From: Gigantopelta aegis
Lineage: Eukaryota > Mollusca > Gastropoda > Neomphalida > Peltospiridae
Reading direction: 5' to 3'
Assembly: GCF_016097555.1 (NCBI RefSeq)
Contig: NC_054708.1
Span: 6,852,764-6,916,763 of the forward strand
DNA length: 64,000 nucleotides
In this document: positions 9,163-50,261 of the stretch, piece by piece
How positions within the stretch are numbered: position 1 is the first letter of the stretch
Layout of the letters: each line of letters begins with the position of its first letter
Notes under the pieces: generated by a model
Told to the model about the DNA's origin: nothing
Seen by the model: the letters and a program-made list of their open reading frames with translations, nothing else
Databases searched by the model: none
Program-made: the position numbers and the translations under genes

Positions 9163-12100
9163 CACACAGAGGTGATGAACGCTGTTTTTGTAACCTACTT
9201 CAGGATTCTCAAACAAGCCCGGAAGTCAGGACTGTTGCCCTCTGTGTTCGAAGGACTTGCAAAGTAAGTTATTGTATACTTTAAAGTCAGGCTGTATTTC
9301 TGCTAATACAGCTTAGTTTTATGAATTAATGGAAGCTATTTGATTTGTCTAGTTTGCTATAGAAATTACACAAAGTAATGTTGTTTTTTTAATATTAAAG
9401 GGACACACCCTAGTTACAGCTAGTTGTTAACCATTACGGCGTTGTTTTTCGCTATTAAACCCATTTTTTCACAAATAAAATTGCACTTTACTTACCGTTT
9501 ATTATTTAGAATATACATTTCCATTCACCTGAAGTGTTTTTTGGTAATCCTGGTAATCCTGGTGTTTGTAATACCACAAAATGCATTTTTCGTATTTCTG
9601 AAAAAAGGACGCACGTTTGAGAAAAAACCGTTGAGCAGACAAGGTCTAATCTATTTTTAGACGGGATATTTCCATTTCAATGTCACAGACGTTGGTATAC
9701 CACATGACCGTTATCATTTTAATTCGGTTTGTTTTCTCGTGCACGGTTCGCGCAATCAACATCCGATTTGTTGTTGTTCATTTGTGAGATTTTTCTTCAC
9801 AGTTCGTGAAAATTTTCAGTAACAATAAAGTTCAGACAAGTAAGTATCTCAATACAAAACGTTACAAACCCTTAAAACCAATAATTTTGCTAAGTCCTAC
9901 GATATCTGGAGAGGGGATACAACCAGGACAGAACAGTTGGAACATGTCCAGGAAGGTGAAAAGAATGCACCCCAAGTCTGTGATATTGTAGTGACGTAGG
10001 CATTGTTGTGCTTCGAGCGACATCTACCGGTGACATCAGAATACAAACTTTCAAAATTATTTCAAGCAATTGGGACATGGGGATTCCCATGGTATTTATC
10101 GATATAAAACCTGCTTTTTTACCCATTTGATAAAAACGTGATCTAAGTGTGTTACAGGTTTGTAGATTAACCAAATTATAATTTATTTTCGCTGGATGGA
10201 ACTAGGGTGTGCGGCTTTAATTAATTTTTATATATTTGAGCCATAATAGTTGAGTTGAGAAAATGAGTGACATTGCATTAGAAAAATAAAATACATACAA
10301 TTTTATAAAATGATTATTACAGGGCTCGAAACGGCCTGTAGCCAGGTCGCCAATTGCGACCCAATGTCCAGTTTGGGCGACTCAAATATTAAAAAAATAT
10401 TGCATTAGTCGTCCAAATAATATTATGTGGCCGATCTTTAGAGCTATAACATATGAACCACAATTAATTTGTATTCCACATTAAAATCATGCTCGTGGTT
10501 CACTTACCACAACTTGACAACATCCATTATTATTTTGGGGGCCACCATATTTTTTTGGTGAGTTTCAGACCCTGTTATTATATATAATAAGATTATAAGT
10601 CTTAGACTAATTGCACTTGAAAAATATTTCTGGAACTCATGCTTTTGTAGATATTCTTTCCAATACTTTTCTCAAGAAAATTAATCTGTGGAGCTTGCCA
10701 AGGCTCGCTCGAAGGAATGGGTTTCTTGACACTCATGTCAGAAAAAACATCTACAAAAGAACTTGTCCCAGAAACTATTATCTATAATTTGTATGCATAA
10801 TACGCATTTTGAATGAAAATGTTTTTTGTACATAATTTCAGGGATGTGAAAGGGGCTGGAACAAAAAAACTTACTGTGGCCGGGGTCCAGGAGCCACTTA
10901 AGGGCCCCTGTAGGAAAACTGTTGTTTGCAACCCCTGGAACTGCTAAAAATTGCATTCAATGCTAACAAATCTAAACTGGTTCTAACTTATAATATAAGG
11001 CACACATCATAAACCTGAAACCATGAAAACATGCAAATGAACCTTGTGTGGTCAACAGTATTGAACATTATGTTTTTGATTTTTTAGACAAAATGGAAAA
11101 GTGCATTTACGCGTTTCAGCATAGCTCTCACATCCCTGTAATTTTCTGTGTGTTTTGTTTTTCTTGGTGGTGTGATATCTGATTGCAATCTGTTACAGGT
11201 TTGCCCATCTGATCAACATAGATTTCTTTGACGATCTGTTTACTGTCTTCAAAAATATACTTGAATCTGGGGTGAGTTTATAGCTTGGCTTAATTTCATA
11301 CTGGTTTGCTGTTGTTAACAACTGTCAGTGGACAACATCTTGTAAATATGATGTTAAAGTGATGTTTATTTTTAAAATTATTATGATGTAAAGTAACGTT
11401 TATTTTCCAGGAATTATAAGTTATATTTATTATGATGTTAAAATAGTGTTTATTTTCCAGGAAGTACAAGGAACAATTATTATGATGTTAAAGTAGTGTT
11501 TATTTTGCAGGAGTTACAATACCGACAAAGTCTGCAGTGTATCCAGACAGCATTCACCATCTTGTCTGGCCAGGGGGCAGCACTAAACATTGACCCGATG
11601 AACTTCTACAGACATCTGTATCAAAAACTTTTGAAAATACACGCAGGTATAAACACACATCTAAATCTCTCACAATTACAAAGTCATTATTAATTCAGTA
11701 GATTTTCTTAATTTTATTATAAGAGTGAGATATTTGACTGGGCTTATCACTTTTTCTACTTATTTATTAAACTGTTGTCAGTAATTCATTCAGCAGAGTG
11801 AGATAACGTTTGTGTTTGTTTATTTCTAAGTGATGTAGATTTCTTCTGACATTAAGGAATTAGGAAATGCACTTGTCAACTACATATATTTTTAAATGTT
11901 TAAATATCTTGCATTTATCTTTATGGATTTTCAGGAAGTGACAGCAAAGATATTTTAATAATTCTGAACTGCCTCGACTTGATGATAAGCAAGAGAAAAA
12001 GACAGGTAAATAATATGCAGTTAACTTGTACTGGTCTCACTTCAGTATACAGATATGTTTTCATTAGAACTACCTGAACAGGATGGGAAACACCCACCCA

Positions 12101-15100
12101 CATATATTGTGATGTAAATACAAACGTATTAGCATCAAGCTTGATGCGTGTTTTGTTTGTTGTAATTAGAGTGTAAATATTGGAATGAGCTGCAATAAAG
12201 AGATAAGATCGTTTTACCCATACTAGTCAGTGAAATACTTGATTTTGTAATAGGGTGTAATTGCTGGAATTATCTATACTGACGTTCAAAAGAAACTTCA
12301 CAAGGCTTGAAATTGTATTATAGAAAACCCACAAATGATATGGTGGGATTATGAAAGTATCTTGAAGTTCAACAGTTAAACGTCACAGTGCTATTTGTGA
12401 CACATGCAAAGTGTTTGTAAGGTGGTTTCTAAATTGGTTCTTTTTCAATTAGCAACAATATTTATTAAATGATTCAGATTTTATGTATGTAAAGTTTGTT
12501 TTGGCCGTCAGTATACAATAAAGATGTAGATCTGTGGAATACTTGTTCTGATCAGAGATGAATAGTTCTAGTGAGGTTCAGATAAAAAAAAAATCCACAA
12601 TACATTTGTAAAAAAAGCAATACACCGGAGCATTTTTATGACTAACAGTATGCTGGAGCATTGATAAACCAACTTTCCTTTTCTTTGTGTTATGTGTGAC
12701 ACTGCTGACAGGCTGAAACATTGTGTTACACTTTAAAACGTTGTGTTACACTTTGAAAGGTTGTGTTACACTTTAAAATGTGTTACACTTTGAAAGGTTG
12801 TGTTACACTTTAAAACGTTGTGTTACACTTTGAAAGGTTGTGTTACACTTTGAAAGGTTGTGTTACACTTTAAAACGTTGTGTTACACTTTGAAAGGTTG
12901 TGTTACACTTTAAAACGTTGTGTTACACTTTGAAAGGTTGTGTTACACTTTGAAAGGTTGTGTTACACTTTAAAATGTTGTGTTACACTTTGAAAGGTTG
13001 TGTTACACTTTAAAACGTTGTGTTACACTTTGAAAGGTTGTGTTACACTTTGAAACATTGTATTACTCTTTGTAGGTTTCCCAACCCAGAATCCTGGCAT
13101 TCCTCAAGAGACTGTGCACCATTTGTCTGCAGCACCAGCCGCACGCAGTCCTTGGAATTCTCTCCGCTGTCCGCAGTTTGATACATGTAGGGGATCTTTT
13201 TCAGTTTGTCTGTCTCATTAGCTGCTTTAACACTTGCATTTTTGGTACGAGCTAAATTTAGTCCAAACTAAATTGAAGTGGCACGTTCACACACATTTTT
13301 ACCTTATCATACAAAAATATGTGACTGCAAGCGAAACATTTATGAGCCTAGATCGATGGTTTTGGTCATACCAAACTAGTCCGGGTTACACTAGTCTGTA
13401 CCAATGTAGACCTGAAAAATGGTTAGTGTGAATGTTTAGTCCGGACTAAAAATGATAGTGTGAATGCAACTATTAATAGCACTTTTATAAAACTAATAAA
13501 TATTTGGAATTAACTTGAACTATTCTGTAATGATACATAAGTAAATGTAGGTGACCGGACACATTGATAACAAATCTAAATTATTTGAATATGTTTTTAG
13601 ATAACTTCATATTTGTGAAAAGTAACACTTGTTTTATTGCATTTAAATGGGTAGATTTTTTTCAACAAAACAGTGTTTTTCAATATCTTCTTTTAGATTG
13701 TTTTGCTTAAACCCTTTACTCAATACTTTTGACCACTTTTGTAATGGACTCTCAGTAATTTAGAACATAAAACTGCTTTTAACTGGCAATTTGGAATTTG
13801 GTTCCTATTTATAGGGGAAATTTTCTATCCATAGTAAAAATACTAGTTCTACTTATGTTTTAACATTTTGGGATGGTATGTGATATAAATGAGAAATGGC
13901 ATTTCATTTGAAGTAGTATTTCTCCTAAAGTCAACTTTAAAACATGAACCTTTCTTCTGTCGGTGATTATTAAATTGGTTCCAGATCCTAATAATCATTT
14001 CCATTATTTGTTTATCTTGGTTCAGAGAGCACTGTAACATTATTATTATATATTTAATAATCCTGGAGTTAATGTGTTTGTTTTCAGAATCACACGAGTA
14101 CGGACCTTCTGTTTGATAACGAGGCTCAGGGAAGCGGTGTGTATCTGCCGGAGCTGGACGACCCGGAACACTGCCACGCCCACAACGCAACTCTGTGGGA
14201 AATCACTACTTTGAGAGTACGTCGTTTACCAGGGCCCCATTCCATGAAGAGATCTGAGCCCTAAGATTACCTTAGGCGCATAGCTACCCTATGCACTTAA
14301 GTTGATCTTAGGGCCAAGATCGCTTCGTGGAACGGGGCCCTGGACTTCTGAGATATAAAAAATCCAGCCATTATCTTTGTCAGTTGTGTTCAAAACCTTG
14401 CAAATAAGATATCTTGCAATAGTGTCTTGTTAAGTTAATCGCCTGATGATTTCTGTTTGCTTTATAAGAATACATTTTCCTACAAAAGTCATTTGAGAGA
14501 CCACAGTGTAAAATTTGATTGTCACATAACGACGTCCAATATTTGTTCAAAAATGATTTACAGATATTTGATTGGCTGCTTCTTGGAGATGACCTATTAC
14601 CCACTGAAATTAACACAACAGATACTGATTACTATTAATGATGCAAAAGTTGACTGTAAATAGCTTCTGGATGGAAAGATGTTTCCAGCTTATTTTGGCT
14701 TGTTAGATAGTTTGGAAACTACCCATTTTAAGAGAAATGATGTCATGAAATATTCTCCATGTCCCCTTTGGAATTTGCTCAATGTCCATTCCCTGAAATT
14801 TCTCATTCCATGCATAACATATTATTTTGATTAATAAAGTGCAATTTAAAAATTCACAAGGATAAGTAGAAGCACGTTTCTTATATTGCATTGTAATTTT
14901 TCACAAATATGCTCTTAGAGAATTGTTCAATAAGTGTTTGGTTGTTACTAAAACAAAGATTGCTTTTTGAACAGATATATTTTGCTCTTTATACCATTTT
15001 ATGGAACAAAATGTTAGCCTTATGTGAACACACTTATGAGTACCATCAGCCTAAAATGCATTTATTGATTAAATGAATGAAAATGAATTGCTTTTGTTTT

Positions 15101-27800: not shown

Positions 27801-30800
27801 TAATAGTAAGATTTAAATGCTATGTCTAGATCTTTGATAGTAGATAAGCATCCTCCTACAACATTTTTTTTATAAATAATTTCAGTTTTGTTTGACATAA
27901 GAAAAAAAGTAAAAGTGTTTTGGAAATAACAAAAATATACTATTTTTGTGTCCAATTTAGTAAACAATTGGCTCAGAAATAAATAACTTGTAGTAAATAC
28001 CATTGCATGAAAAAAAGCGTTCCCTCTGGAATGGACTTTAGACACTTTTATAATAGATGTAAATAATTCTGGCTCTAACTAGACTAGATTCTGACTTGCT
28101 GGGTAGAACTGTCTGCATGGACACTAACATCGTTTGAAAGCCTTGTGCATGCTGCTTGTCTTGTAGGAAGTGAACCAGCTGCAGTTTGAACTGGAGTACC
28201 AGGAGTCGTCTTTCATGGACAGCCAGCAGACTTGGGCTGTCAGATTCGATAGGTAAATTACTTATCATACAGCTAGTATGTAGAGACATATCACACCTTA
28301 CAGTTCTAGCTAGACTTTCAGATCTGCTGGTGAGTCTGGTTGTGGTGAGGGAGAGAGTTTGGGTTGGTTTCAGGGGGTTGTGTTGTGTTAAGGGAGTCTA
28401 GTTGTGTTGTGTTGAGAGGGTCTGGTTGTGGTGAAGGAGAGAGTTTGGGTTGGTTTGAAGTAGTGGGGTTGGGTTGTGTTAAGAGAGTCTGGTTGTGTTG
28501 TGTTAAGAGAGTCTGGTTGTGGTGAAGGAGAGAGTTTGGGTTGGTTTGAGGGAGTGGGATTGGGTTGTGTTAAGAGTCTGGTTGTGTTGTGTTAAGATAG
28601 TTTGGTTGTATTGTATTGAGGAGTCTGGTTGTGGTGAGGGATAGAGTTTGGGTTGTTTTGAGGAAATCATGATGTGGTTGTGGTTGATGCTGATCATGCT
28701 TAGTAAAAATACACACGTGTACTTTCAGAGTTTCAATTTAATCTTGGTCATGGTGCTAACATTTTAATTTAAATTCATAAAGCTTATTTTGGGTATTTAA
28801 TTTTTCTTTTTGATTTATAATTTTTCTTTTTTTTCTAGTGAACTTTAGCATTAGCAAGAGCATATGTAATTATATTGACTCCCAGATTTTTTAATGACAT
28901 TAGGTTAAAATTCTGCTTTGTGTCCAAGTTTAGATTCTTCAAATCAGCATTCTACATTTATGTACATAGAAACATACATGCATGAATCAACCTACTGCAC
29001 ATATTGCTGATGGCCCTGTTTGAAGAAAGACGGGTCAAAGCTCAGCATGCGACGGTGTGATTACCGGTACCTGCTCATCGTGTTACCGGCACACTGTGTT
29101 ACCTGCACACCGTGATACCGACAGGTGATCTGTGTCTTGCAGCTATCACACCTATACCAGGTCACAGTGTCTGGTCCATCAGGCATGTAATCAACAGTTG
29201 GTACCAGGTGGCATTGTGGTGTGTCCACTTCATTCTGGTAGTAGTTTGTGTGGGCTCATTCTTGTAATAGTGTTTTCCCTAGCTTGCTTTAGCATGATGC
29301 GACACCATGCCACAATAGTCCAGCGCCAACTTGCCTTAATCAGTGCCATGCTGCCCTTTTTCAATAATTAATTCTAAAATGGCTTTTACGAAATGCTCAA
29401 AGCATTTGTTATTAATTAATAAAATATCCCTGTTATATATTTTGCCATTTATTTATTGAAGTAAGCAGATTAATTACATTTATTTTTCTTTCAATTATTT
29501 TTTGGAGGTCTTTAATTAAAAAAGAAAGTGGCCTGAAAATTGCTCCAAAATGTAGTCTACCATGCCTTGCCAAATGTCTAGGAAAAACACTCTGCAACAT
29601 TGGTCCATTAATCCAAAAACTTGATTCTTTTTAAATAACTTTACAAAATAATGAAATTTAGCACATTAAATCCAAGTCAGATAAACTTGTATAAGTTTGG
29701 TCTTTAAAATTCTTCAATAATAGTGCAATTATAATTTAATATTTAATTAGTATAAGTGTAAACATCTGTTATTGTTATTTGAAAATATTCTGAATGTATA
29801 TAATTATTTTTGCTAATAGTATACATGCAATAAAACAATAGTTAGACTTCTACTTCATTTGCTGCCTTTTAAATGGTCTGAGCAAGAAGTTCTACATTTG
29901 TTCAGTTTATCCATTGATAGGAACAGGGGAAGGGGTGGGGATGAGGGAGCCTGTGCCCCCTCACTTGAGAATGAAAATGTAAGAACATTTTGTCTTTCTA
30001 TATATAAATAAAGAAAAAAATCTGGCTTGTGCCCTCTCCCCCCCCCCCCCCCACTAGAGATTGTGCCACCTCACTAGAGATTGTGTCCCCACCCTCCTCT
30101 TCAAATATCGTTCCTACAAGCCTGCATGAACATAAAAATAACGATAACAACTGGTACCTTTTAACATTTATTTAAGTCTAGCTACTGTTAATTAATAATG
30201 TTAAACCCAAATAATAAAAATGTAAAGTAATCAAAATTTAAAAATTAGTTATTGCCATTCCTACAAGGTCATGTGTAAAACATTTTTGTTATTTTATGTT
30301 GTAATTTAAAACACTTCTTTCAATCAGCATACATTCTAAGTAGGTTTTGAAGCATTGTGTAAATAACCAAGAGGACGTTTTGTGTAAAACTGATTAATGT
30401 ATAGAGTGACTGATACTTCTTAACTTGACACAGAGGTCTTTGGTGCCTGCCCTTACTTTATTTAACATACTCTTGAAGCACACGCTGTTGGTGAACAGAA
30501 TGAAACAGCAAATACAGACCGCTAGTAAGTGTTTACCTACGTCAGGTGTCGTACTGGTGAGATTGAACATCATCGGTGTACAAGTGGCTTGATAGGTTTA
30601 CACCTTCAAGTGTTGTAGTTACAGGTGAAATTTCACACCTGCAGAGAGTCATTACAGGTTAATGACTTGATTATTTGCACAAAACTCAGTCATCACTCTG
30701 AACAGAGAGAGAGAAAAAGTTTCCTAGTAGCATGAAGCTATAGAATTTGTTATTTTAAAAATGTGAAACTAGATTTAATTTCATTTCAACTTATTTTAGT

Positions 30801-33800
30801 GCTTATATCCAATTAACGTTCAAGCACGCTGTCCTGGGCACACATCTCAGCTATCTGGGCTGTTTGTCCAGGACAGTGGGTTAGTTGTTAGTTGGTTAGT
30901 GGTTAGTGAGAGAGAAGAGGGTGTAGTGGCCTTACACCTACTGTACCCATTGAGCCCTTAAGAACTCGCTCTGGGTTGAAGCCGGTACCTACCAGCCTGT
31001 AGCCTGATGGCTTAACCACTACGCCACCGAGGCCGGTGTGTGTGAAACTAGAGTTGTTTTCATTTAAGCAGTGCTTTATTTCCTTCATATATGTTAAATG
31101 ATGGCTTTGGTCAGAAACCTAGTAGTATACAGATTTTCCCTTACAACATGTTGATTTGAATAGTTTTTTAAAACGCTAGCATTAGAATTGCTAGTATAAA
31201 TTGAACATGGTCTGTATATGTAGTTTAACTATTTAATTACCTTGCTGTTCCATATGATTTCTCAGTATACGCAAATTAATATTGAAAAAAAATTAGTATG
31301 GCTTAGTTGAAATAAGCTATTATTAGACAAATATATTTACCACAAAGGTCTAATTTGGTATTAAGAGATTCTTTGTGGTAATATTATATACACATACCCA
31401 TATAATACATGTATAATTTTATTGATGTTTTGAACTACCATTTCAAACAATGCTGACAATATTTGTAATGGACCAAAACTAAAACTGAACACTCAACCTA
31501 TCTCCCCCCCCCCCCCACCCCCCAACCCCCCCACACAATAATGAACACAACCAAAATACATGGAACAGATTTGCATAAACAATGAATGAAAATAACCGAC
31601 GAATAAATTGTTGTGATACTACTTGTAGATACAGGTAGACGTGCATATGCTTGTTACATTTATCTTCAGCTAATAGTGATTGTTTTTAAATGTTTTTTTG
31701 CTTCAGCTGTGGGACAGTTTTTTTCTATTATTTTGCATGCTATTATGTGGAGCAAGTCCTTGCTTGTAAGGTAATATCAAATAGCAATTGATTAATTTTT
31801 ATATTTATTTGTACAGCACCACTAGAGCACATTGATTAATTAATCATTAGCTATTGGATGTCAAACACTTGGTAATTCTGACATCTAGTCTTAGAGGAAA
31901 CCTTCATTTTTCCATTAGCAGCAAGAGGTTATTTATACGCACATTTCAACAGACAAGACAACACATACCACAGTCTTTGATATACCAGTAGTATGGCACT
32001 GGTTTGGTACAGAAAAACAAACCACTCTAAGAATGGTTCCACCAAGGGGGGTTGATCCTACAGCCAAAGCTCTTCAGGCATGTGCTCTCCTGACTAAGCT
32101 AAATTCAGCCACACTCATACATTCAGTGTGTGGAAGAAAACTACCCCGGTTAGTTTATTAAAAACTAGATGCTTGAGCACCAGGTGAACAAAACCTCATT
32201 GTTGTAATTTTGAGAGGCCGATTGAATATACATGGGGCTCTATCGGATAATCAGTTATACCGGTTATTAGCATAAATTTGACACACATCGGGGCTATGCA
32301 ATTAAACGGATTTGACTGTATAATGATCTATATCACCTTCCTAAAGGACTTGCTTTGCGTGGGTTGCTATTGGTGACGGTAACACTGGCTGTCTATCTGG
32401 TTTAGGGTGACTTTGACTCTGACTCGGAGGTTGAGGTAGAGGAGGTGGAGGATGTAGAGTACACCAGGTGTGCTGCGTACCTAGCTCACTGCTGGGACTA
32501 TGAGGTCCTCTACGACAGGTAACATGCTTTACACTCGCTTTCATCTTCAGTACACCTGCAGGTCTAGCTCTAGAAATTGCCTTAAAAATAGTTAATTCGC
32601 AATTTTTATTTGGCAAAATAATTTTATGTAATAATTGATATTTTGTTTGCAAATAACTGGGTTTTTGAAGATTTAACAGATAATTTGGTGAAATTTTCTG
32701 CTCACCCAGAGCTTCTAAAATGCTGGTTAGGATCTTATGTTAGTCATATTTTATGTATTTTGCTTATATTGTATTTGATTCTGAATCTGGTTTATTCATT
32801 TTCTTTTATTTTGAAAAGTATTCCTTTGATCTTATAATAGTTGTATGAGTTCAGTTTAGTAACCAAAAAAAAAAAATCCCTGGGCCATTAGTCTGAATTG
32901 TTTATGGTTTTTTGGTCCTAATTTTAAGAATAATTACTATGTAAAAAAAAAATCATTGTCATTATGTATTATATAACATTGTTACATTCTCTTGTATTTT
33001 TCTATTTACTGCTGAATTGTCTTTATACAAGGTACCCAGTGTTTACAAATGCATTGTATTCTAAACCAACCAAAATACCAGTTAAGAGAAAAGTTTCTCT
33101 CATCCTCAGGTATTTGGAACAGAGCTATCCCATGAAAGAAAGCCATGTAAGAAATTTCTATCTTACATGGGATATCACGCGCTTGCGTTTAACATGACGT
33201 TGTTGGTAATATATGACGTCATATTAATGTGAGGCGGTGACGTGAGGTCATTAGACACAGTTTTAAATTAATATTTTGTTATTAAAACCTTCATTTTAAA
33301 AGCTATCTTGTTAATTTGTAATGTTAAATTTTATTTAACACATGAAACAAACACGGCAAATACAATAATGTAGTTTATTTATGATAAAATTGTCAAATAA
33401 AGAAGTTACTTGTTCAGCCATCTTTGTCTGTTCGTGTAAAATAATGGTTTATTTACCGAATGAATGAGAGAAAAAGACTCCATCATATGTGGTCATGTGG
33501 GATAGAAAAAGTACAAGCCTCGTCCCAGGTTGAAATTTTCACCACCTCAGGTGTACTTTTTCTATCCCACATGACCACATTTGATGGAGTCTTATATTAC
33601 TTCCAGAGTTGCTGAAAGAATACTAGTTACCAGTAACAAAAAAGGTTTATTTCCAGAGTTTGCCAGGAGAATGATAGTTACCAGTAACAAAAAAGGATTA
33701 TTTCCAGAGTTTGCCAGGAGAATGATAGTTACCAGTAACAAAAAAAGGTTTCTTTCCAGAGTTTGCCAGGAGAATGATAGTTACCAGTAACAAAAAAAGG

Positions 33801-34207
33801 TTTCTTTCCAGAGTTTGCCAGGAGAATGATAGTTACCAGTAACAAAAAAGGTTTATTTCCAGAGTTTGCCAGGAGAATGCTTATTTGATGTCGTGTCTTG
33901 AAGCCCGGTCAGAGGAACTACGTCGAGCCAATTCTCACAAGATGGGTCAGTTTCGTAATTACATCAATTTTACTTTAATCTGTGGGATTCTGTGGGCTAC
34001 CATCTGCAGTATGTAATGATCTTACTTTATTGGGAGTAATAGGAAAGAAAAACGTATTGTTGCAGGATCATATTTGTAAAATGTTTTTTAGTAAGTTTAT
34101 GTTTGCAACTAACAGTTATATCATTTGTATGTATATTTTCTATGTGTTTGGCATCTATTTTACAAAAAAAAATACATCATTACAGAAGATGGAGTATTAT
34201 AAGGATG

Positions 34208-34243
<36 letters not shown>

Positions 34244-37200
34244 TCAGGGGTGGGGATAAGCCCTTTTCTCCCGGTCTGGGACCGATTCTCGGTCTCTGAG
34301 ACCGAAATTATTTTTTAAAAACGTGTGTTTGCCGGTCCCACTTTTGTCATTCTTGTCGGTCCAAAGCACCTGTCCATTTCTATTATTGGAACAAATTCTT
34401 ATCCGTCAAGTGGACCGGCCTGCCGACATCGGTATCTCATGCATGATTTAAAATAATAAATAAATAGTGGTCAATATGGCTAGTGGCAAGACGTCTGTGA
34501 TTTTGAAGTCTGCCTACCGTATATCTTCGCCTGTAAGTCGATCTCGGCTATAAGTCGAGTCCCTAATTTCAAGCCCTGAAAACGTATTTTTTTATTGACC
34601 CGTTTATAAGTCGACCCATGAAAAACTACTTATAAATATTGAAATATTTCTTATTTTCAGCACATGAGAACAATAATATTTGAACAAAAGAAAATTATTT
34701 TACAAACTTCGGTTTTCACGTTTTGTACATCGCAATATAATCAGACTATTCCAATCAAACTATCATTATTACATAGCATCAGAACGAAATATTCCCTTAG
34801 TAGAGAATGAAAGCTGTTTGACTGTTACTGTATAGTACTGTACAGATGGTTTTGTGCACAGACAACGACTTTATTTATAAACACTGACAACAGATCACTA
34901 CGATAAAACTGAAAGTATCACGTTTTGCCGCCATATTAATACATGTAAGGAGGATAACTCTGGAAAGTACACTGGTTTTTGTACCAAATGTTGTGTGTCC
35001 CTATTGCTCTAGATAGTGAACTGCAGAGATCAGTCTATTTTAAGGGAAAGCTCAGTAATATTCATGAAGTTAATCAGCGCCAAAACATTGTTTGAACAAC
35101 CATTAATGCCAGTGACCAGATTTCAAAATAAACTCAGGCAACAGGTAGTTAGTATTGTTTACATTTTTACTATTAGTGATGACTGTTAATTTAACTAAGT
35201 GGACTGTTGTCTTTGGCATGTGAGTGAGATCGTACGCCTTTTCGCATAACCAAAACCGTTCTAATGCCAAAAAAAAAAAAGGTTATAAAAAATAAATGTG
35301 TCAAATTAACATATTTGAGTATAAATACATGGCATACTTCAACAATAAAACTTGTAAAATAATCCCCAAAACAGTAATATTTTTTGGTGAAATTTTTTTA
35401 CCCTCTTATAAGTCGACCCCCCAAGTTGTAAAATAATTTTTGGGTGAAAAAAATTCGACTTATAGGCGAAGATATACGGTAAGTATATATCGTCAGTCAC
35501 TGAAGTCGGACCTACAGTAGTGTCAATCCACAGCCACTAGGCTAGACATTAATTTTGTCAAAGTTGCTGAGCCAGTCAAGAGATTAAACAGACGTTAACA
35601 ATAACACCATTCTTGGTGAGAGAGCCATCAAGGTATTACACTCCAATTAAAACAAAGGACCCAGAGTTTGCAACTGGTTACAATCAACACCTGTCAACAC
35701 CTATGTACAGAGCTTTGTCGGGTCGGGTGTCCCAGTCCGAAGCAAGAGACTTTTGTGCAATACAAACTACTTGAAATAGCATAAAATATACTGAAATAAT
35801 CTATAAATGTATTTATTGTTGACTGTTCAATGCAGTCTATCCAATAATTATAAAGGATTTTAAAATTAACAAAAGGTTTCCATTTTGTTTGTTAACAAGT
35901 GGGAGTAAGCAGAACAGCTACATGTACTGGTTATCTTAAGAGCCAGTAGAGGTCAAATTTTGTCCAATCAGTGATGACGTTATTAATCTCTTTGTCTAAA
36001 CATGTACTAGCTCAGGCCGTCAAACGCTTCAACGGTGCGATCTTTTATTAATTTTCAGGACACAGTACTGAATATTCGTACTTTTTATACATATATGGGA
36101 TTTAAATTGATAATTTTTATTCCTTTTTTATATTATTTATTCCATTATGTAAAATATATACAATTTGTGGTTTTTTGTTTTTTACCACTGATGTGATAAA
36201 AAAAAAAATTTATTCCTTCCTTTTTTCCCCCTCTTTCCCCTCTCTGTTAATGATGACATCAAATGGGACCGATTGACAATTTTATTTCCCCCCACCCCTG
36301 ATATAAATATATGTATACTTCCAGCTATATTAGTTGTACTATTAGCAGTCAAACAAACTGTGGCTTAGTCATAGATTTATGTTTATGTGCAAAACTGGGT
36401 TTACAGTATTTTGTGAAATTGGTGCCTGGAATCATAAAGTCTCAGAGTTTATAGAATTAAACACCATATCACCAGTGTAGACTCCAAAATATTCACACAA
36501 AATGTAGATGATTTAAACTGATTGTTGTCAGTTAAATTCTGAGGAATGGTTAATATATGGGGAAAATAATAATAATTCTCTTATTAGTTAGTGATTTTAA
36601 GATGAGATAAAATAATGATAAGACCAGAAGTATATTTTAAAACTGTTTAAAATTTATATTAGTTTTAGACAAACACATAATAAGTAAATTTGATTGCAGC
36701 TCTTGTCCGTGAAAGAGATGAACTGGTGGCATTACTGGACGTGCGTGACAAGACGAAGTATGAAAAGTCTAAAAGTCAGTCGTCCGACGAGGATTATGGA
36801 ACATACTCGTGTGTTGAGGTTTGTACAGTTGTAACATTAATAGATTTCACATGTGTGTTTCAAAGTGCATGTAAGATTTCACAGACAGTTTATAGGAAGA
36901 AAATATACCTTGTTGTATAATAGCTTTCATCTACCTGTACAATACACCTGTATGTTCCATGTATTTGTAGATCGTGTTTAGTAGACTGCCAGACAATTTG
37001 TTGTAGAGTAGATTGTGAGTAGGCCTATCCGTATACAGTGTTCTGTGACAGTGATGCATCATACTGTCACAACCTGTGAAATCACTTTTTGGACTTTATC
37101 TTGTGCAGAGATGTGAGCTTCAATACAGGTGTTAATGAGCCCAGCTTATGAAAAAGCATAATTCGCCATAGTTTGGTATCTATGTTAATCAGTGTTTAGT

Positions 37201-40200
37201 CTACACTGTATTTTTGTTACTAAGTATATCAAGAGAAAGATTTAATTGCTTGTAGAACAGTGTTGTAATTTAAGATTTGTAGCACAAAGAAAAGATGTAA
37301 AACAATTTTGACTCTTTACAATTTTTAGAACAGTGTTAAATATAAAACAGCTGGGATAGTGTCGTGCCATCTTTGCTTGCTCTCAGGATCCTCACAGAAA
37401 ATACTTCAGACAGGTGATTCAGATGACTCTAAAGCTGTTCAAAGTGACACCATTGTTTTATTATAAAGTGTTTTTATTTGTTTGTCAGCTGGCTGTGTTA
37501 GGAGCATGTCAGTGTCGCCAGTCGAACCCAGAGCCCTGTCGCTGTGCACATGCTGCAGCTAACCTGCGCAAAGACATTGCTAGGCAACGAGATGAGGTAC
37601 GTTAAATGACAGTGATCACAGAATAATATATGTCTGTATGGGGAATTGCCACTGGTGGATGGATATTCACAGATATTACTAAATGTATGTTACTATCATG
37701 TCTGAGATACAGTTTTGTTCGGTGGGTTATATACCAAACTTTGTGATAATTTTATGTTATTCATTTTACTTATGGTCCCATTATATAATACATAAAAGAC
37801 AAAGGATTTGAAAATTGTCGAACATTCATACATTAAACAAAACCTTTTACACTTAATGGTCTTTTGGGCATCTGTTTTCCAGACCTCTCAAGTCTCACGG
37901 TTTTCCGCAAAATCTCACAGTCTCATGGTAAGCCGCGAAAGTCTCACGGTTTTTTTCTTCTAAAATCTCACGGTTTTTCTCTTGCGATAAAAATCCATTG
38001 TAGTTCAAACAATTTCTGTTCTTGCTCAGTCGAGTTCTCGGCCAATCCGGCCAGAAATAACAAACGAAGTGAGAAGACTGGACCCAACAATCCATATTTA
38101 GAAAATCAATGCCAAATAAGGTTATCGCTACCAGTCTCTCGCATTCTCGTTGGAGAGTTTGCACGCGTGACGTAGAAGTGAAAATTCCCTGATGTCACCT
38201 GTCAAATATTGTTTTCTACACAAAAGAACGACCAGTTTATTTTGCTTAGCACTTGATTATGTATGAATAGGTCAATCTCCAGGTTTTTACTGAAATCTCC
38301 AGGTTTTTGGACTTCAGTGTCCAGGTTTCCAGTGCCTCAACCGGTTTCCAGTGCCTCAAGGTTGAGAGGTGTGATTTTCATGCAATGACATCCAGCATAA
38401 ATTATATTATTCTAGGAAATGCTTCGACCCTAACCATGATACTATTTTTGGTCTATAACTAACTCCATTGCGATTTTTTTTTTTTTTGAACTTGTTTTCA
38501 CTTGACCTTAGGCAAGTATATATTAAGTTTAAAAAATGGTCTCATATGTGACTAAATTGATCACAACATAGAGGGCTGTATTAAAAACAGTTTTACTGCT
38601 GTGATAATGATTCTTTTCTGTAGCTAAACTCAGTTGGGGGCGGGATTTAGCTCTGTCCATTGAGTGCTTGCTTGTGTCGCAGGATCGAACCACCTTGGTG
38701 GATCCTTTCAACTGATTGGTTTTTTTTGTCACAACTGGTCAACGGCCATGGTATGTGCTTTCCTGTCTGTGTGAAAGTGCATATAAAAGATCCCTTGCTG
38801 TATTAGGAAAAATGTAGCAGGTTTCATCTGATGACTACAAGTCAGAATTACAAAATGTTTGACATCCAATAGCTGATGATTAATTAAACAATGTGTTCTA
38901 GTGGTGTCGTTAAACAAAACAAACTTTTCTTCTGATAACTACGGGTCAGAATTACCAAATGTTTGACATCCAATAAACAATGATTTATTAATGAATGTGC
39001 TTTAGTGGTGTCGTTAAACAAAACAAACTTTAGCTGACCTCCGTTTTGCCATTTTAGACAGAGCTATATAAACACTGGCACTAACCTATGTTTTGGTTTT
39101 TTAGATAGAGCTATATAAACACCGGTGCTAACCTCTGTTTTAGTTTCTCAGATAGAGCTATATAAACACTGGTGCTAACCTCTGTTTTAGTTTCTTAGAT
39201 AGAGCTATATAACAACTGGGGATAACCTCTGTTTTAGTTTCTCAGATAGAGCTATACAAACACTGGCGCTAAGCTCTGTTTTAATTTCTCAGATAGAGCT
39301 ATATAAACACTGGTGCTAACCTCCGTTTTGGTGTTTCAGATAGGGCTGTAAAAACACTGGCGTTAACCTCTGTTTTAGTTTCTCAGATAGAGCTATACAA
39401 ACACTGGTGTTAACCTCTGTTTTGGTGTTTCAGATAAAGCTGTACAAACACTGGTGCTAACCTCTGGTTTGCTGTTTCAGATAGAGCTATACAAACACTG
39501 GTGTTAACCTCCGTTTTGGTGTTTCAGATAGAGCTGTAGAAACACTGGTGTTAACCTCCATTTTGCTGTTTCAGATTGAGCTATACAAACATCGGCGCGA
39601 CGAGGCCTACATGACGGTTGATGCGTACCGGAAGGCGTTTGAGGAACAGCTCCAGAAGACCAAGACGCTCAGTCTCAGGTTCGCCGAACTCGCCGTGCCA
39701 GGGTCGTCGAAGGCCGTGAAGGCCAAGGCCGCCATCAAGTGGCTCATCAGTGTCCTCAATGATGGTAAGTCAGGGCTCATCAGTGTCCTCAATGATGGTA
39801 AGTCAGTGTCCTCAATGATGGTAAGTCAGTGTCCTCAATGATGGCAAATTCAGTGTCCTCTATGACGTTAAGTCAGTGTCCTCACTGATGGTAAATGATA
39901 TTGCACATGCACTCATCTACTAATGTTTGTATATTTCAGATGACCTGAATGATCCGGTGAACCAGCCAGCCAAGTCCAGGACGACACTGAACGGTCCGTT
40001 TCCGAATGATTTGAACACCAAGTCCACCAATGGACCAATGAGCCCCCAGGATCTGGTCACACTGTTAACAGAAATGGTAAAACTGTTTACCTTACGATGA
40101 ATTATTGGACTGTGATGGGCCATTATAATGATGAATTATTGGACTGATGGACCACTCTAATGATGAATTATTGGACTCTGATGGGCCACTGTAATGATGA

Positions 40201-42981
40201 ATTATTGGACTGTGATGGGCCATTATAATGATGAATTATTGGACTGTGATGGGCCACTGTAAAGATGAATTATTGGACTGTGATGAGCCACTGTAATGAT
40301 GAATTATTGGACTGTGATGGGCCATTATAATAATGAATTATTGGACTGTGATGGGACACTGTATTGATGAACTATTGGACTGTGATGGGACACTGTATTG
40401 ATGAACTATTGGACTGTGATGGGCCATTATAATGATGAATTATTGGTCTGTGATGGGCCACTATAATGATAAACTATTGGACTGTGATGGGCCACTGTAT
40501 TGATGAATTATTGGACTGTGATGGGCCATTATAATAATGAATTATTGGACTGTGATGGGACACTGTATTGATAAACTATTGGACTGTGATGGGACACTGT
40601 ATTGATGAATTATTGGACTGTGATGGGCCATTATAATGATGAATTATTGGTCTGTGATGGGCCACTATAATGATAAACTATTGGACTGTGATGGGCCACT
40701 GTAATGATAAACTATTGGACTGTGATGGACCACTGTATTGATGAACTATTGGACTGTGATGGGCCACTATAATGATAAACTACTGGACTGATGGGTCACT
40801 GTATTGATGAACTATTGGACTGTGATGGGCCATTATAATGATGAATTATTGGACTGTGATGGGCCACTGTAATGATGAATTATTGGACTGATGGGACACT
40901 GTATTGATGACTATTGGACTGTGATGGTCCACTATAATGATAAACTATTGGACTGTGGTGTGCCATTATAATGATGAATTATTGGTCTGTGATGGGATAC
41001 TGTATTGATGAACTATTGGACTGTGATGGGCCACTATAATGATAAACTATTGGACTGTGATGGGCCACTATTGATGAATTTTTGGACTGTGGTGGGCCAT
41101 TGTAATGATGAATTATTGGATTGATGGGCCATTGTAATGATGAACTGTTGGACTGTGGTGAGCCATTGTAATGAAAAACTATTGGACTGTGGTAGGCCAT
41201 TACAATGATGAATTATTGGACTGGTGGGCCATTGTAATGATGAATTATTGGACTGTGGTGGCCCATTGTAATGATGAACTATTGGACTGAAGTGCTATTG
41301 TAATGAATTACCTTCATTTATTCATCCAGTGCTCCACAACTGGTATATCAAAGATGATATGTGTAATCAGACCTAGACTTGAAAAAATCCTGAGAAAATT
41401 GTTCCCATAACCCTATTAATACCATATAAATTTACATGCTGAGAGAAGCTAAACATTGCTGTTTTTTAATTAGTCTGAGGGGAGTGATGGCGAAATCTGT
41501 GTAATATTTCCTGAATTAGGATCTGGGTATGCATTTGTATGCATGACTGATGATGTTAAGATCTAAAGACGTTATTAGAGACTTGAGTCTTGACTTTAAA
41601 ACTTTTATAAGCATGGGACCAGGAACTTGTTCCACTCAAGGTCGAGGTGCACCCATCTTGGGTGGGATGAACTTAAAAAACAAAGACTCCTAGCTGCTAA
41701 TTGGTAAGCTATGATATCACTATGGCGTTTGATGTAGTGACGGCATAGCCTATGATGCTTTTATGATTTTGTAGCACTAAGATAGCTTGAAAAATTCCTA
41801 GCCAGGGCTGAGCAATTTCAAATTTCTTTATCCATGACCTGGTTGGTAGGAGAATCATATGTCATAGAACCATGTAGTAGTCTGACTGTGCAGTCCTGGT
41901 TGCTGTAGTTGAGAACTAATCTCTGATTACATAAATATAGGCAGCATCAGAGAGGAATAACACATTCACCCAACCGTATCAGTTAGTTATTATCAGAGAG
42001 GAATAACACATTCACCCAACCGTATCAGTTAGTTATCATCAGAGAGGAATAACACATTCACCCAACCGTATCAGTTAGTTATCATCAGAGAGGAATAACA
42101 CATTCACCCAACCGTATCAGTTAGTTATCATCAGAGAGGAATAACACATTCACCCAACCGTATCAGTTAGTTATCATCAGAGAGGAATAACACATTCACC
42201 CAACCCGTATCAGTTAGTTATCATCAGAGAGGAATAACACATTCACCCAACCGTATCAGTTAGTTATCATCAGAGAGGAATAACACATTCACCCAACCCG
42301 TATCAGTTAGTTATCATCAGAGAGGAATAACACATTCACCCAACCCGTATCAGTTAGTTATCATCAGAGAGGAATAACACATTCACCCAACCGTATCAGT
42401 TATCATCAGAGAGGAATAACACATTCACCCAACCATATCAGTTAGTTATTATTTTGAATCCATGTACTCATTAGATTACTGCTTGCTGGATGAACAAATA
42501 ATCGTGTGAAAATATTGATGTATTTGTAAACAGCTGGTACATATTTAATTACATAATCATAGCTATTTTCAGAGTTATTCTGAAACCTGATACACAGATT
42601 CTATGGGGCAGTATTAACAAAATAATATATATTTCTAAAACAAAAGTAAATTAATTTTAACAAATTAAAATTGACGTGATGTTTAGCATTGAAAAAGTAA
42701 ATAGTGGAACTGTCTAAGATAACAGACCTGTTGTATATTTTAATACCCAGGAGAATTTTTGTATTGATGATTCCTTTTTCTTTGATTGCTTAGGTATATT
42801 ATGACAGTGAAACAGATGTGCATGTATGCGATTTTATATAGGTTTTTTTTTGTGATTGCAGCTTCATGAAAAGTCTGAAGCCCTTGCCCACCAGAAGCTT
42901 GCTGCCCAAGTTCTTGCCAGTAAATTACATGCAGCCGAAAGTAAACTAGCAGCACGCGGAGATGAGGTTTTTACTCAATAA
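21806..42981 (+). CDS. CCDC125: CCDC125, coiled-coil domain-containing protein 125 (complete, eleven exons)
   Basis: The vertebrate homologue (kenae) is a cytoplasmic coiled-coil protein linked to cell motility and Rho signalling. Exons: 21806-22280, 22863-22927, 23916-24002, 24257-24328, 28167-28252, 33863-33945, 36700-36818, 37489-37596, 39575-39764, 39940-40076, 42862-42981 (TAA). All are GT-AG with phase kept; 513 residues against about 511 in human. Family marks: GDLGLGEGLKPGG at residues 23-35; a coiled coil at about 165-290; the block LAVLGACQCRQ with a Cys-rich stretch from residue 330; DEAYMTVDAYRKAFEEQL; and PQDLVTLLTEMLHEKSEALA near the end. The vertebrate tail after this point is not matched. 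Start: first ATG after the GC-richer promoter, with the conserved motif soon after. Splice sites of exons 6 and 9 lie in tandem repeats, and an alternative to exon 5 may exist at 32406. Confidence 0.92.
22449..22466. repeat. (AC)n microsatellite
   Basis: About nine CA units in CCDC125 intron 1. Confidence 0.9.
22928..23915. other. CCDC125 intron 2, unassigned GC-richer patch
   Basis: The intron is AT-rich except for about 23330-23640, which is GC-richer and internally repetitive (CTAGGAGAAG...AACTCCAAA occurs twice). It may be a decayed repeat, but I cannot name the family. Confidence 0.4.
24540..24793. mobile_element. Probable hAT-like fragment
   Basis: It starts CAGGCCTCTGA and ends TATGAGCCCTG, with TTAGCCAATT and AATTGGCTA inside as in the 15445 element. 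The head resembles that at 19033 (CATTCGCGCGTCG; GCATAAG). I see no target duplication. Confidence 0.4.
24794..26325. other. CCDC125 intron 4, no recognised feature
   Basis: AT-rich sequence. A weak inverted pair (TAATCGG at about 25552 and CCGATTA at about 25578) is flanked by CTAGTT/AACTAG-like bases, too short to assign. Confidence 0.4.
26326..26504. mobile_element. Small hAT-like element with 6-bp duplication
   Basis: The ends CAGGGTTGGCAATTC and, inverted, CAGGGGTGGGAATTG match the classical hAT terminus. TCTGGT is present at 26320-26325 and 26505-26510. 179 bp, non-autonomous. Confidence 0.7.
27536..27727 (-). repeat. SINE, minus strand, tail shortened
   Basis: Read on the minus strand it has the tRNA-like head (GGGACGTAGCCCAGTGGTAA), the GGGCTATTTCTCGTTCCAGC block, CTGGTATATCAAAG and GCATATAAAAGATCCC, and ends in TTAAATAAAACATTTCTTTC. 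The section between the ATAAAAGATCCC block and the tail is missing. Confidence 0.9.
27843..28035 (-). repeat. Dispersed repeat R1, copy 1
   Basis: Similar to 50262-50450 and 57415-57630 on the opposite strand. Shared blocks on the minus strand are TTTACTACAAGTTATTTATT, TTGTTATTTCCAAAACACTT and TGTAGGAGGATG. The family and ends are unknown. Confidence 0.7.
28300..28690 (+). repeat. GT-rich minisatellite in CCDC125 intron 5
   Basis: Imperfect units of GAGTCTGGTTGTGGTGA and GAGAGAGTTTGGGTTGGTTT alternate, about six to eight times, just downstream of exon 5. Confidence 0.8.
30774..31040 (-). repeat. Second SINE family (B), complete copy with target duplication
   Basis: On the minus strand it opens with a tRNA-like head (GGCCTCGGTGGCGTAGTGG, then GGTAGGTACCGGCTTC) and continues into a body different from the common SINE (contains GTCCTGGACAAACAGCCC and ends AAGTTGAAATGAAA). 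TGTGAAACTAGA is duplicated at 30762-30773 and 31041-31052. Other copies: 55116-55366 and a fragment at 63765-63880. Confidence 0.85.
31800..32116 (-). repeat. SINE, minus strand
   Basis: Has the family's 3' part (CTAGAGCACATTGATTAATT and TATTGGATGTCAAACACTTG as written on plus), CTTTGATATACCAGTAGT, and a diverged tRNA-like head ending near 32116. Fairly old by its divergence. Confidence 0.8.
32406..32518 (+). CDS. CCDC125: Possible mutually exclusive alternative to CCDC125 exon 5
   Basis: The block is preceded by CTGGTTTAG, followed by GTAACA, and is open for 37 codons plus 2 bases. It enters in phase 0 and leaves in phase 2, exactly like exon 5 (28167-28252). It codes for an acidic stretch (DSDSEVEVEEVEDVEY) and ends WDYEVLYDR, compared with WAVRFDR in exon 5. 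Using both exons gives an in-frame TAG after eleven codons; using neither shifts exon 6 into a stop. So only one of the two can be used in a full-length message. Exon 5 is the one that matches vertebrate CCDC125. No expression evidence; a chance open block in a GC-richer patch is possible. Confidence 0.35.
33139..33171. repeat. Short hairpin in CCDC125 intron 5
   Basis: CCATGTAAGA and TCTTACATGG face each other across a short AT loop. Confidence 0.6.
33474..33593. repeat. Strong hairpin, 41-bp arms
   Basis: Left arm 33474-33514 and right arm 33553-33593 are reverse complements with a single mismatch, separated by 38 bp. The arms contain GTGGTCATGTGGGATAG and its complement. The hairpin sits directly upstream of the acceptor repeats of exon 6, and may be a foldback MITE. 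Confidence 0.85.
33601..33880 (+). repeat. 51/52-bp tandem repeat containing the acceptor of CCDC125 exon 6
   Basis: Acceptor AGs end at 33606, 33656, 33707, 33759, 33811 and 33862; the last is the true one. Spacing is 50 to 52 bp. Apart from the first, diverged unit, each has TTTCCAG followed by AGTTTGCCAGGAGAATG, the true exon start, before returning to GTTACCAGTAACAAAAAA. Reading from a decoy in the host frame ends at TAA ten codons on (CAG TAA). Confidence 0.95.
34245..36300. mobile_element. hAT-like element with 8-bp duplication, carrying a nested insertion
   Basis: Left end CAGGGGTGGGGATAA; right end, inverted, CAGGGGTGGGGGGAAATAA. ATATAAAT is duplicated exactly at 34237-34244 and 36301-36308. 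A different element is nested at 34517-35479. I found no readable transposase in the remaining 1.1 kb, so it is probably non-autonomous. Confidence 0.8.
34517..35479. mobile_element. Tc1/mariner-like (possibly pogo group) MITE nested in the hAT-like element
   Basis: The ends CCGTATATCTTCGCC are perfect inverted repeats flanked by TA on both sides (34515-34516, 35480-35481). Subterminal TATAAGTCGA motifs occur near both ends. 963 bp, no transposase frame. The TA duplication and end type suggest Tc1/mariner; the subgroup is a guess. Confidence 0.75.
37880..38373. mobile_element. Probable MITE with ACCTCTCAA ends
   Basis: The left CAGACCTCTCAAG faces the right TTGAGAGGTGTG. TTTTC occurs next to both ends. 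Internal TCTCACGG repeats sit at the left and CAGGTTT repeats at the right. CCDC125 intron 8. Confidence 0.45.
38638..39030 (+). repeat. SINE with duplicated tail
   Basis: The tRNA-like head (GGCGGGATTTAGCTCTGTC) with GGATCGAACC is followed by GGCCATGGTATGTGCTTTCC, GTGCATATAAAAGATCCC and a tail ending GTGTCGTTAAACAAAACAAA at about 38928. The tail section is then repeated at 38930-39030. The acceptor array of exon 9 starts right after it. Confidence 0.9.
39040..39574 (+). repeat. 47-bp tandem repeat of the 3' splice site of CCDC125 exon 9
   Basis: Twelve AGs end at 39057, 39104, 39151, 39198, 39245, 39292, 39339, 39386, 39433, 39480, 39527 and 39574, every one exactly 47 bp from the next; only the last is the real acceptor. 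Most units hold a branch-site-like CTAAC (TTAAC in some), a pyrimidine-rich stretch, CAG or TAG, and then ATAGAGCTATAYAAACACTGG, a near copy of the exon start ATTGAGCTATACAAACATCGG. In the host frame a decoy start runs into TAA about nine codons on, inside that same TAAC. Confidence 0.97.
39755..39900 (+). repeat. Repeated 5' splice site of CCDC125 exon 9
   Basis: The exon end GTGTCCTCAATGATG and donor GTAAGT at 39765 recur with donors at 39798 and 39821; then come a GC variant at 39844, a decayed copy, and GTAAAT at 39891. Steps are 33, 23 and 23 bp. Use of the donor at 39798 would add 33 bases, that is eleven residues (GKSGLISVLND) in frame without a stop. Confidence 0.92.
40083..41310 (+). 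repeat. 34-bp minisatellite, about 36 units
   Basis: Unit built of ATGATGAATTATTGGACTG and TGATGGGCCACTGTA, with point and small-length variants. It begins just after the donor of CCDC125 exon 10 but contains no exon sequence that I can see. Confidence 0.95.
41318..41372 (+). repeat. SINE fragment
   Basis: TCATCCAGTGCTCCACAACT followed by GGTATATCAAAG matches the SINE middle. Only about 55 bp are recognisable. Confidence 0.5.
41944..42452 (+). repeat. 46-bp minisatellite, about 11 units
   Basis: Nearly identical units of CATCAGAGAGGAATAACACA with ACCCAACCGTATCAGTTAG. A C-insertion variant (AACCCGTATC) recurs in three of the later units. CCDC125 intron 10. Confidence 0.95.
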
Positions 42982-49420: not shown

Positions 49421-49563
49421 CGTAAGAGCAACATGCCAGTGTGGTATAGTCCCCAAGTAAGAGCAACATGCCAGTGTGGTATAGTCCCCAAGTAAGAGCA
49501 ACATGCCAGTGTGGTATAGTCCCCAAGTAAGAGCAACATGCCAGTGTGGTATAGTCCCCAAGT
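49421..49563 (+). repeat. 35-bp tandem repeat, four copies
   Basis: Nearly identical copies of GTAAGAGCAACATGCCAGTG plus TGGTATAGTCCCCAA. No gene nearby. Confidence 0.95.
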
Positions 49564-50261
49564 ATATGAGACAGCTGTTTTATATACCATGATTTGAGAA
49601 ATATTGTTACGTTTTCTTTACAATTAATGCACATGCTGAGATATTGCTTGTGGGGTTCTTCTAGAATATATCATATGTGGGGGTGATGGGGAGGGTTAGG
49701 CAATTTAAAAAATATTGCCACTATCCACATTTTAATTATTTTTTAAGATATGTTTACATATGTTTAATATGTGGCAGACTCACGAAACAAAAAATATTTA
49801 CAATCCCTCCCAACTCCATCCCCACCCTATGTAGTTAATTCTGGAACAACCCTTATGGACTGATACAAACTATTATTCATGTTTTTTTCTGTTGACCATC
49901 ATTGGTTGTGAATGTCATGTGTGCACCTGGCAAGCTGTGAAAGTGTCTTGTTGTTATCATTCAGTATTACTAGTTGGTAGATGGAATATCAGTTTGTTAT
50001 TGATTTATTTGTGTTTTTATGTTAAAATATGAAACAAGTGCAATGTTGCTAGGCTTATGGGGAAATATGGTACCTAAATAGTATTCATCATTAACATAAA
50101 TAATGTATAACGTTTTTACATAGGTGTAGTTACAGCTTACTAGTGAGTAGAACTGCTGCTTTATTGATCAGCTGATTTCATTTATTAGTCCTTATTAATT
50201 AAATTATTAAATTAAATTAAATTAAATTATGTTTATGTAATTACTTATAGTCCTTCTCACA
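49564..50261. other. Intergenic, nothing recognised
   Basis: AT-rich, with a short AATTA-type run near 50196-50228. Confidence 0.5.

What the first reader, a model, noticed from the sequence alone, without database searches (positions are those of the whole stretch)
39040..39574. Twelve copies of a complete 3' splice site at an exact 47-bp period before CCDC125 exon 9
Most units have a branch-site-like YTAAC, a pyrimidine tract, AG and a near copy of the first 21 exon bases. The period never varies across eleven intervals although bases do. Decoy starts reach TAA, within the branch-like TAAC, about nine codons on, so a wrong choice would normally create a stop. How the spliceosome chooses the twelfth site is a real question. 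It could regulate dosage through nonsense-mediated decay.
Basis: partly seen in the sequence, partly recalled or inferred. Interest (0 to 1): 0.8.

Follow-up and report, generated by a model that had tools for sequence, protein, structure and literature searches.

The report
Tandem-repeated splice site before an exon
A splice site at the start of one exon has been copied head to tail twelve times, most likely by ordinary tandem-repeat growth, and similar repeated splice sites turn up at about one in twenty of the exon edges sampled in the same animal genome.

Summary
In detail: twelve 47-bp units at 39031-39595, all with AG and in exact register, each holding 26 intron bases plus a near copy of the first 21 exon bases. 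All 11 upstream copies read into a stop; only the last keeps the frame.

It is not unique. In the window the donor of the same exon is multiplied too, and two other acceptors (a third in part) sit in such arrays. Among 155 myosin, CCT and kinesin exon matches examined, 13 of 273 usable splice sites have a tandem copy carrying exon bases and an intact AG/GT. Any tandem copy is as frequent at splice sites (17/273) as in nearby intron (37/546). The arrays look like minisatellites that happen to straddle exon edges, with no measurable targeting or removal.

This matches amphioxus 'mirages', which seem not to disturb regular splicing. Exon definition (long intron before, 175-nt intron after) predicts the twelfth site; no RNA was available to test it. 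Dosage control through nonsense-mediated decay is possible but unsupported. New member of a known kind.

The parts
39031..39595 (+). array of twelve 47-bp units: 26 intron bases (branch-site-like sequence, pyrimidine tract, AG) + 21 exon-like bases
39031..39548 (+). eleven decoy units; AGs end at 39057-39527; each reads into a stop at codon 4 or 9
39549..39595 (+). twelfth unit with the predicted working acceptor (AG ends 39574); the only copy whose frame stays open to the donor
39575..39764 (+). coding exon after the array (IELYKHRRDEAYMTVDAYRKAF...), CCDC125-like (name recalled)
39741..39896 (+). donor-side array of the same exon, 33- then 23-bp units; identical GTAAGT donors after 39764, 39797 (+33, in frame, would add 11 residues) and 39820 (+56, leads to a stop)
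33596..33879 (+). second acceptor array in the same gene: five AGs ending 33656, 33707, 33759, 33811, 33862 (51/52-bp spacing), each followed by the same 17 exon bases; the four decoys all reach a stop
11376..11519 (+). acceptor array before a NOC3L exon, about three 50-bp units, AGs ending 11410, 11460, 11510
12721..13075 (+). 20-bp array (17.8 copies by TRF to 13072) running into the pyrimidine tract and acceptor of another NOC3L exon (starts 13076); partial case, identity 0.675 only, intron side

Best explanation
The array is a minisatellite born by tandem duplication of a 47-bp segment that happened to straddle an intron/exon boundary (a 'mirage'), then grown by unit-wise exchange or slippage. 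Shown: its anatomy, its recurrence at other splice sites, and a rate not distinguishable from that of tandem copies in nearby intron. Inferred: the spliceosome uses the last acceptor because exon definition pairs sites across the exon (real exon body plus donor), so the eleven upstream copies are mostly silent intron sequence, and the few wrong choices are removed by nonsense-mediated decay. Arrays of this kind persist because only the exon-side copy must stay intact.
For: Twelve units in register without indels; the outermost units differ most from the consensus (8 and 9 of 47 bases; inner units 2-5), as in amphioxus mirages whose end units escape homogenisation (PMC3087553, passages). Three further arrays at splice sites in the window plus one partial. 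Genome sample: 13 of 273 usable splice sites have a tandem copy at identity 0.65 or more with at least 6 exon bases and intact AG/GT; any tandem copy at identity 0.7 or more at 17/273 splice sites against 37/546 positions 60-120 bp into the intron, Fisher P = 0.88. Arrays (period 12 or more) cover 10% of window 9001-64000 and 18% of 198 kb of other loci, mostly around myosin exons. Six NOC3L exons joined at the exon-side copies align without gap over 207 residues to the PDB chain of NOC3 homolog 8fkv, which supports the exon-side copy as the working one there. Upstream intron 1978 nt, downstream intron 175 nt: competing 3' sites of the class LS behave as under exon definition (PMC9225289 section 9; LS read by me as long before, short after).
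Against: No RNA data: use of site 12 is inferred from the open frame. In the window alone acceptors exceed background (3/14 against 6.5%, P = 0.057; 4/14 at a looser cut-off against 7.1%, P = 0.014), which could hint at targeting; these counts include the array of the finding itself, 2/13 and 3/13 without it. PMC9225289 also reports an overall preference for upstream 3' sites, which would favour decoys. An intronic minisatellite is over-represented near multiple alternative splicing decisions in C. elegans (PMC4039745, passages), so silence cannot be taken for granted. Control positions are several per locus and the nearest ones can lie in the same array as the splice site, so they are not independent.
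Confidence: 0.78

Rival explanations
1. The array is a working dosage control: a regulated share of transcripts uses decoy acceptors, reaches a stop and is degraded.
For: All 11 decoys have AG and lead to a stop by codon 9; decoy strengths by a rough home-made score (8.9-11.4) are close to that of the real site (12.4).
Against: AG invariance is not beyond chance (P = 0.21) and the exon-like part is not significantly less variable than the intron part (P = 0.098). In nine decoys the first stop is the branch-like TAA or its equivalent at the unit junction, which the units carry anyway. Similar arrays lie on unrelated genes, and tandem copies at splice sites are no more frequent than in nearby intron.
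Confidence: 0.08
2. A mechanism targets splice sites (for example breaks at transcribed exon edges) and makes tandem copies there preferentially.
For: Window: 3-4 of 14 acceptors, the finding included; kinesin donors 6 of 51.
Against: Pooled sample 17/273 at splice sites against 37/546 in nearby intron; kinesin acceptors 0 of 58; all controls, acceptor side 8/142 against 64/683, donor side 9/131 against 54/676.
Confidence: 0.12
3. Assembly artefact: the copies were produced by the assembler.
For: Not tested against reads.
Against: Units differ from each other by up to 14 of 47 bases with phase kept; unrelated loci show the same kind of structure with different periods.
Confidence: 0.02

Closest known systems
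[quoted passage not shown] similar, imperfect, in PGBD5)
   Same: Tandem units spanning acceptor or donor, many copies with AG/GT, end units outside homogenisation, regular splicing apparently undisturbed
   Different: Another animal group (probably a mollusc, recalled, untested); twelve copies of 47 bp; both ends of one exon multiplied; frequency estimated here in a genome sample. Sources: abstract and passages of PMC3087553 and one passage of PMC3902484; the original Adh3 paper (PMC117041) is not held
[quoted passage not shown]
   Same: Minisatellite whose units carry donor sites
   Different: Donor side of one human gene, with downstream repeat units reported as used donors; here mainly the acceptor side and use of copies unknown. 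Seen only as a passage and a citation in PMC4526556
Intron gain by tandem duplication of segments with AG/GT
   Same: Tandem duplication that copies splice sites
   Different: No new intron here; the copies lie in an existing intron. Seen in passages of PMC3087553 and a search listing
Length-variable intronic minisatellite of abalone TSSK1-like (PMC6905558)
   Same: Intronic minisatellite (27-bp unit) in a mollusc gene, unit number differs between individuals
   Different: The passages seen do not say that it spans a splice site; the gene's boundaries are said to follow GT-AG

Membership tests
mirage (tandem duplication of an exon/intron boundary) | tandem units that include both intron and exon sequence across a splice site | tested here: met
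   26 intron + 21 exon-like bases per unit
mirage (tandem duplication of an exon/intron boundary) | many units keep AG/GT | tested here: met
   AG in 12 of 12
mirage (tandem duplication of an exon/intron boundary) | end units escape homogenisation | tested here: met
   8 and 9 differences from consensus against 2-5 inside; no tree was built
mirage (tandem duplication of an exon/intron boundary) | length differs between haplotypes or individuals | not testable with these tools
   one assembly only; one place found
mirage (tandem duplication of an exon/intron boundary) | regular splicing not disturbed | not testable with these tools
   no RNA; the open frame and, for NOC3L, a gap-free alignment support the exon-side copy

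The most novel reading that the evidence does not exclude
Mirages are pervasive in this genome (13 of 273 sampled splice sites), and at some of them, such as this exon with arrays at both ends, changes in copy number act as a quickly mutable rheostat of productive splicing, including an in-frame 11-residue variant from the donor array.
Probability: 0.1. Interest if true: 0.75.

Novelty: new member of a known kind. Interest (0 to 1): 0.45.

Why it matters
The reports of repeated splice sites that I saw treat a few genes, mainly of amphioxus. A genome in which about one sampled splice site in twenty has tandem copies is a natural experiment on splice-site choice: near-identical competing sites that differ mainly in position. 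Junction reads from one RNA library would test the exon-definition and intron-definition proximity rules across many genes. It also bears on how new introns and isoforms arise from tandem duplication, and suggests that selection against such arrays is weak as long as the exon-side copy survives (inference).

Tried and rejected
Not supported: selection for usable decoys (AG invariance P = 0.21; exon-like part less variable than intron part, P = 0.098). Not supported: a dispersed family (array found at one place). Structured RNA: no Rfam family reached its gathering score in the window. Targeted birth at splice sites: not supported by the pooled sample, although the small window sample leans that way. 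Target-site duplication of the SINE-like element left of the array: the only shared stretch of 7 or more bases has its left copy within the element-like sequence, inconclusive. A minus-strand ORF at 18420-18749 that reminded me of a mitochondrial ribosomal protein had no Pfam match. The 5' exon proposed at 21806-22280 does not join the next exon in frame; an exon between is probably missed, and no exon after 42966 was found.

Limits of the sample. Splice-site scores are home-made weights, and sites were picked automatically near the ends of family matches, so some may be wrong. Rows dropped: 4 myosin rows with more than one stop; no acceptable acceptor in 6 myosin, 1 CCT and 2 kinesin rows; no acceptable donor in 5 myosin, 6 CCT and 9 kinesin rows. 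Rows examined: 55 of 80 myosin, 40 of 64 CCT and 60 of 124 kinesin matches. The first 30 myosin loci are the best-scoring matches; the others were chosen by me, mostly without stops and on large contigs, so the sample is not random. An earlier comparison without kinesin used hand-typed totals (79 donors, 490 controls); the scripts give 80 donors and 489 controls.

Full report
Observation. The twelve sites are real. AGs end at 39057 and every 47 bases to 39574; the whole array is 39031-39595, each unit being 26 intron bases plus 21 exon-like bases. TRF scores it 698 with no indels. Nine of twelve units have YTAAC (read). AG is intact in 12 of 12. All 11 decoys read into a stop, at codon 9 in nine and codon 4 in two. 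A DNA search found the array at one place in the 1.149-Gb assembly that holds the window.

Surroundings. Joining eight predicted exons (23916-42966) gives an open reading of 305 residues for the gene with the array; a proposed 5' exon at 21806-22280 does not join in frame. The name CCDC125 is recalled, not confirmed. The neighbouring gene upstream is NOC3L: 207 residues joined from six exons align without gap to the NOC3 homolog chain 8fkv_SU, E = 1.9e-84. The donor of the exon behind the array is multiplied too: identical GTAAGT donors follow 39764, 39797 and 39820; the second would add 11 residues in frame, the third leads to a stop. The acceptor at 33862 has four upstream copies at 51-52 bp, all four leading to a stop. 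The NOC3L acceptor at 11510 has copies at 11460 and 11410, and the NOC3L acceptor at 13075 lies at the end of a 20-bp array. With a 40-base window test, 3 of 14 window acceptors have a tandem copy at identity 0.7 or more and 4 of 14 at 0.65; for donors it is 0 of 15 and 1 of 15. Five thousand random window positions give 6.5% and 7.1%; for acceptors the binomial P values are 0.057 and 0.014, with the array of the finding included.

Genome sample. Family searches found 80 myosin, 64 CCT and 124 kinesin exon matches; 55, 40 and 60 were examined. After dropping unusable sites, 142 acceptors and 131 donors remained. A tandem copy at identity 0.7 or more was present at 8 of 142 acceptors and 9 of 131 donors. 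Controls in introns of the same loci: 64 of 683 on the acceptor side and 54 of 676 on the donor side (P = 0.19 and 0.86); nearby controls only, 37 of 546 against 17 of 273 splice sites (P = 0.88). The controls are several per locus and not independent. A full mirage (identity 0.65 or more, at least 6 exon bases in the copy, AG or GT kept) was found at 4 acceptors and 9 donors, 13 of 273. Examples are L010 (80-bp units, seven copies printed), L147, L095 and L129 (donors) and L047, L062 and L069 (acceptors). Tandem arrays cover 10% of the window beyond the first 9 kb and 18% of 198 kb of other loci, and splice sites fall into tandem copies about as often as nearby intron does.

How it works. The units show the usual minisatellite pattern, end units most divergent. 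The choice of the last site is inferred. A transcriptome-wide survey finds that sites closest across the exon are favoured under exon definition, and that competing 3' sites of the class LS behave that way (abstract, passages and section 9 of PMC9225289); I read LS as long intron before, short intron after. Here the introns are 1978 and 175 nt. The same survey reports an overall upstream preference for 3' sites, which is against this inference. For donors of class LS it reports a downstream preference, which would predict use of the downstream donor copies of this exon.

Known kinds. [quoted passage not shown] PMC3902484, one passage). The authors say that Adh3 data and their RT-PCR suggest no interference with regular splicing, that copies could still serve as cryptic sites, that length varies between haplotypes, and that the arrays suggest a model for intron gain. 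A human minisatellite with several splice donors is cited in PMC4526556 (passages). A minisatellite is linked to multiple splicing decisions in C. elegans (PMC4039745, passages). An abalone gene has a length-variable intronic minisatellite, not described in the passages seen as spanning a splice site (PMC6905558); an earthworm gene has intronic minisatellites (PMC12783039, passages). My searches, read as listings apart from the papers named here, showed no report of mirages in a mollusc; the library holds open-licence papers only. The finding is a long, clean member of a known kind, with the added point that the kind is common in this genome and not measurably concentrated at, or removed from, splice sites.

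Noticed in passing
1-8992: A 39-bp minisatellite of about 230 copies, 97% matches, open on both strands over more than 400 codons at its right end, 171 bp upstream of a NOC3L exon.
   Followed up: no
40096-41289: A 34-bp x 35 array starting about 20 bp after the next exon's donor (exon end 40076); the donor itself is not in it.
   Followed up: no
about 38630-39031: A SINE-like stretch with a duplicated 104-bp tail (38822-39031) ends within two bases of the start of the 47-bp array. The tail GTCGTTAAACAAAACAAACTT recalls molluscan elements (recalled, untested).
   Followed up: partly
49422-49564: Four identical 35-bp units each starting GTAAGAGC, donor-like; no exon was found nearby, but none was systematically sought there.
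   Followed up: no
L010, L095, L129, L147, L152: Donor-side arrays in myosin and kinesin genes, copies 95-100% identical over the 40 bases tested and extending 26-52 bases into the exon by a simple walk: probably very young.
   Followed up: partly
18420-18749, minus strand: A 109-codon open frame without a Pfam match that reminded me of a mitochondrial ribosomal protein (recalled).
   Followed up: partly
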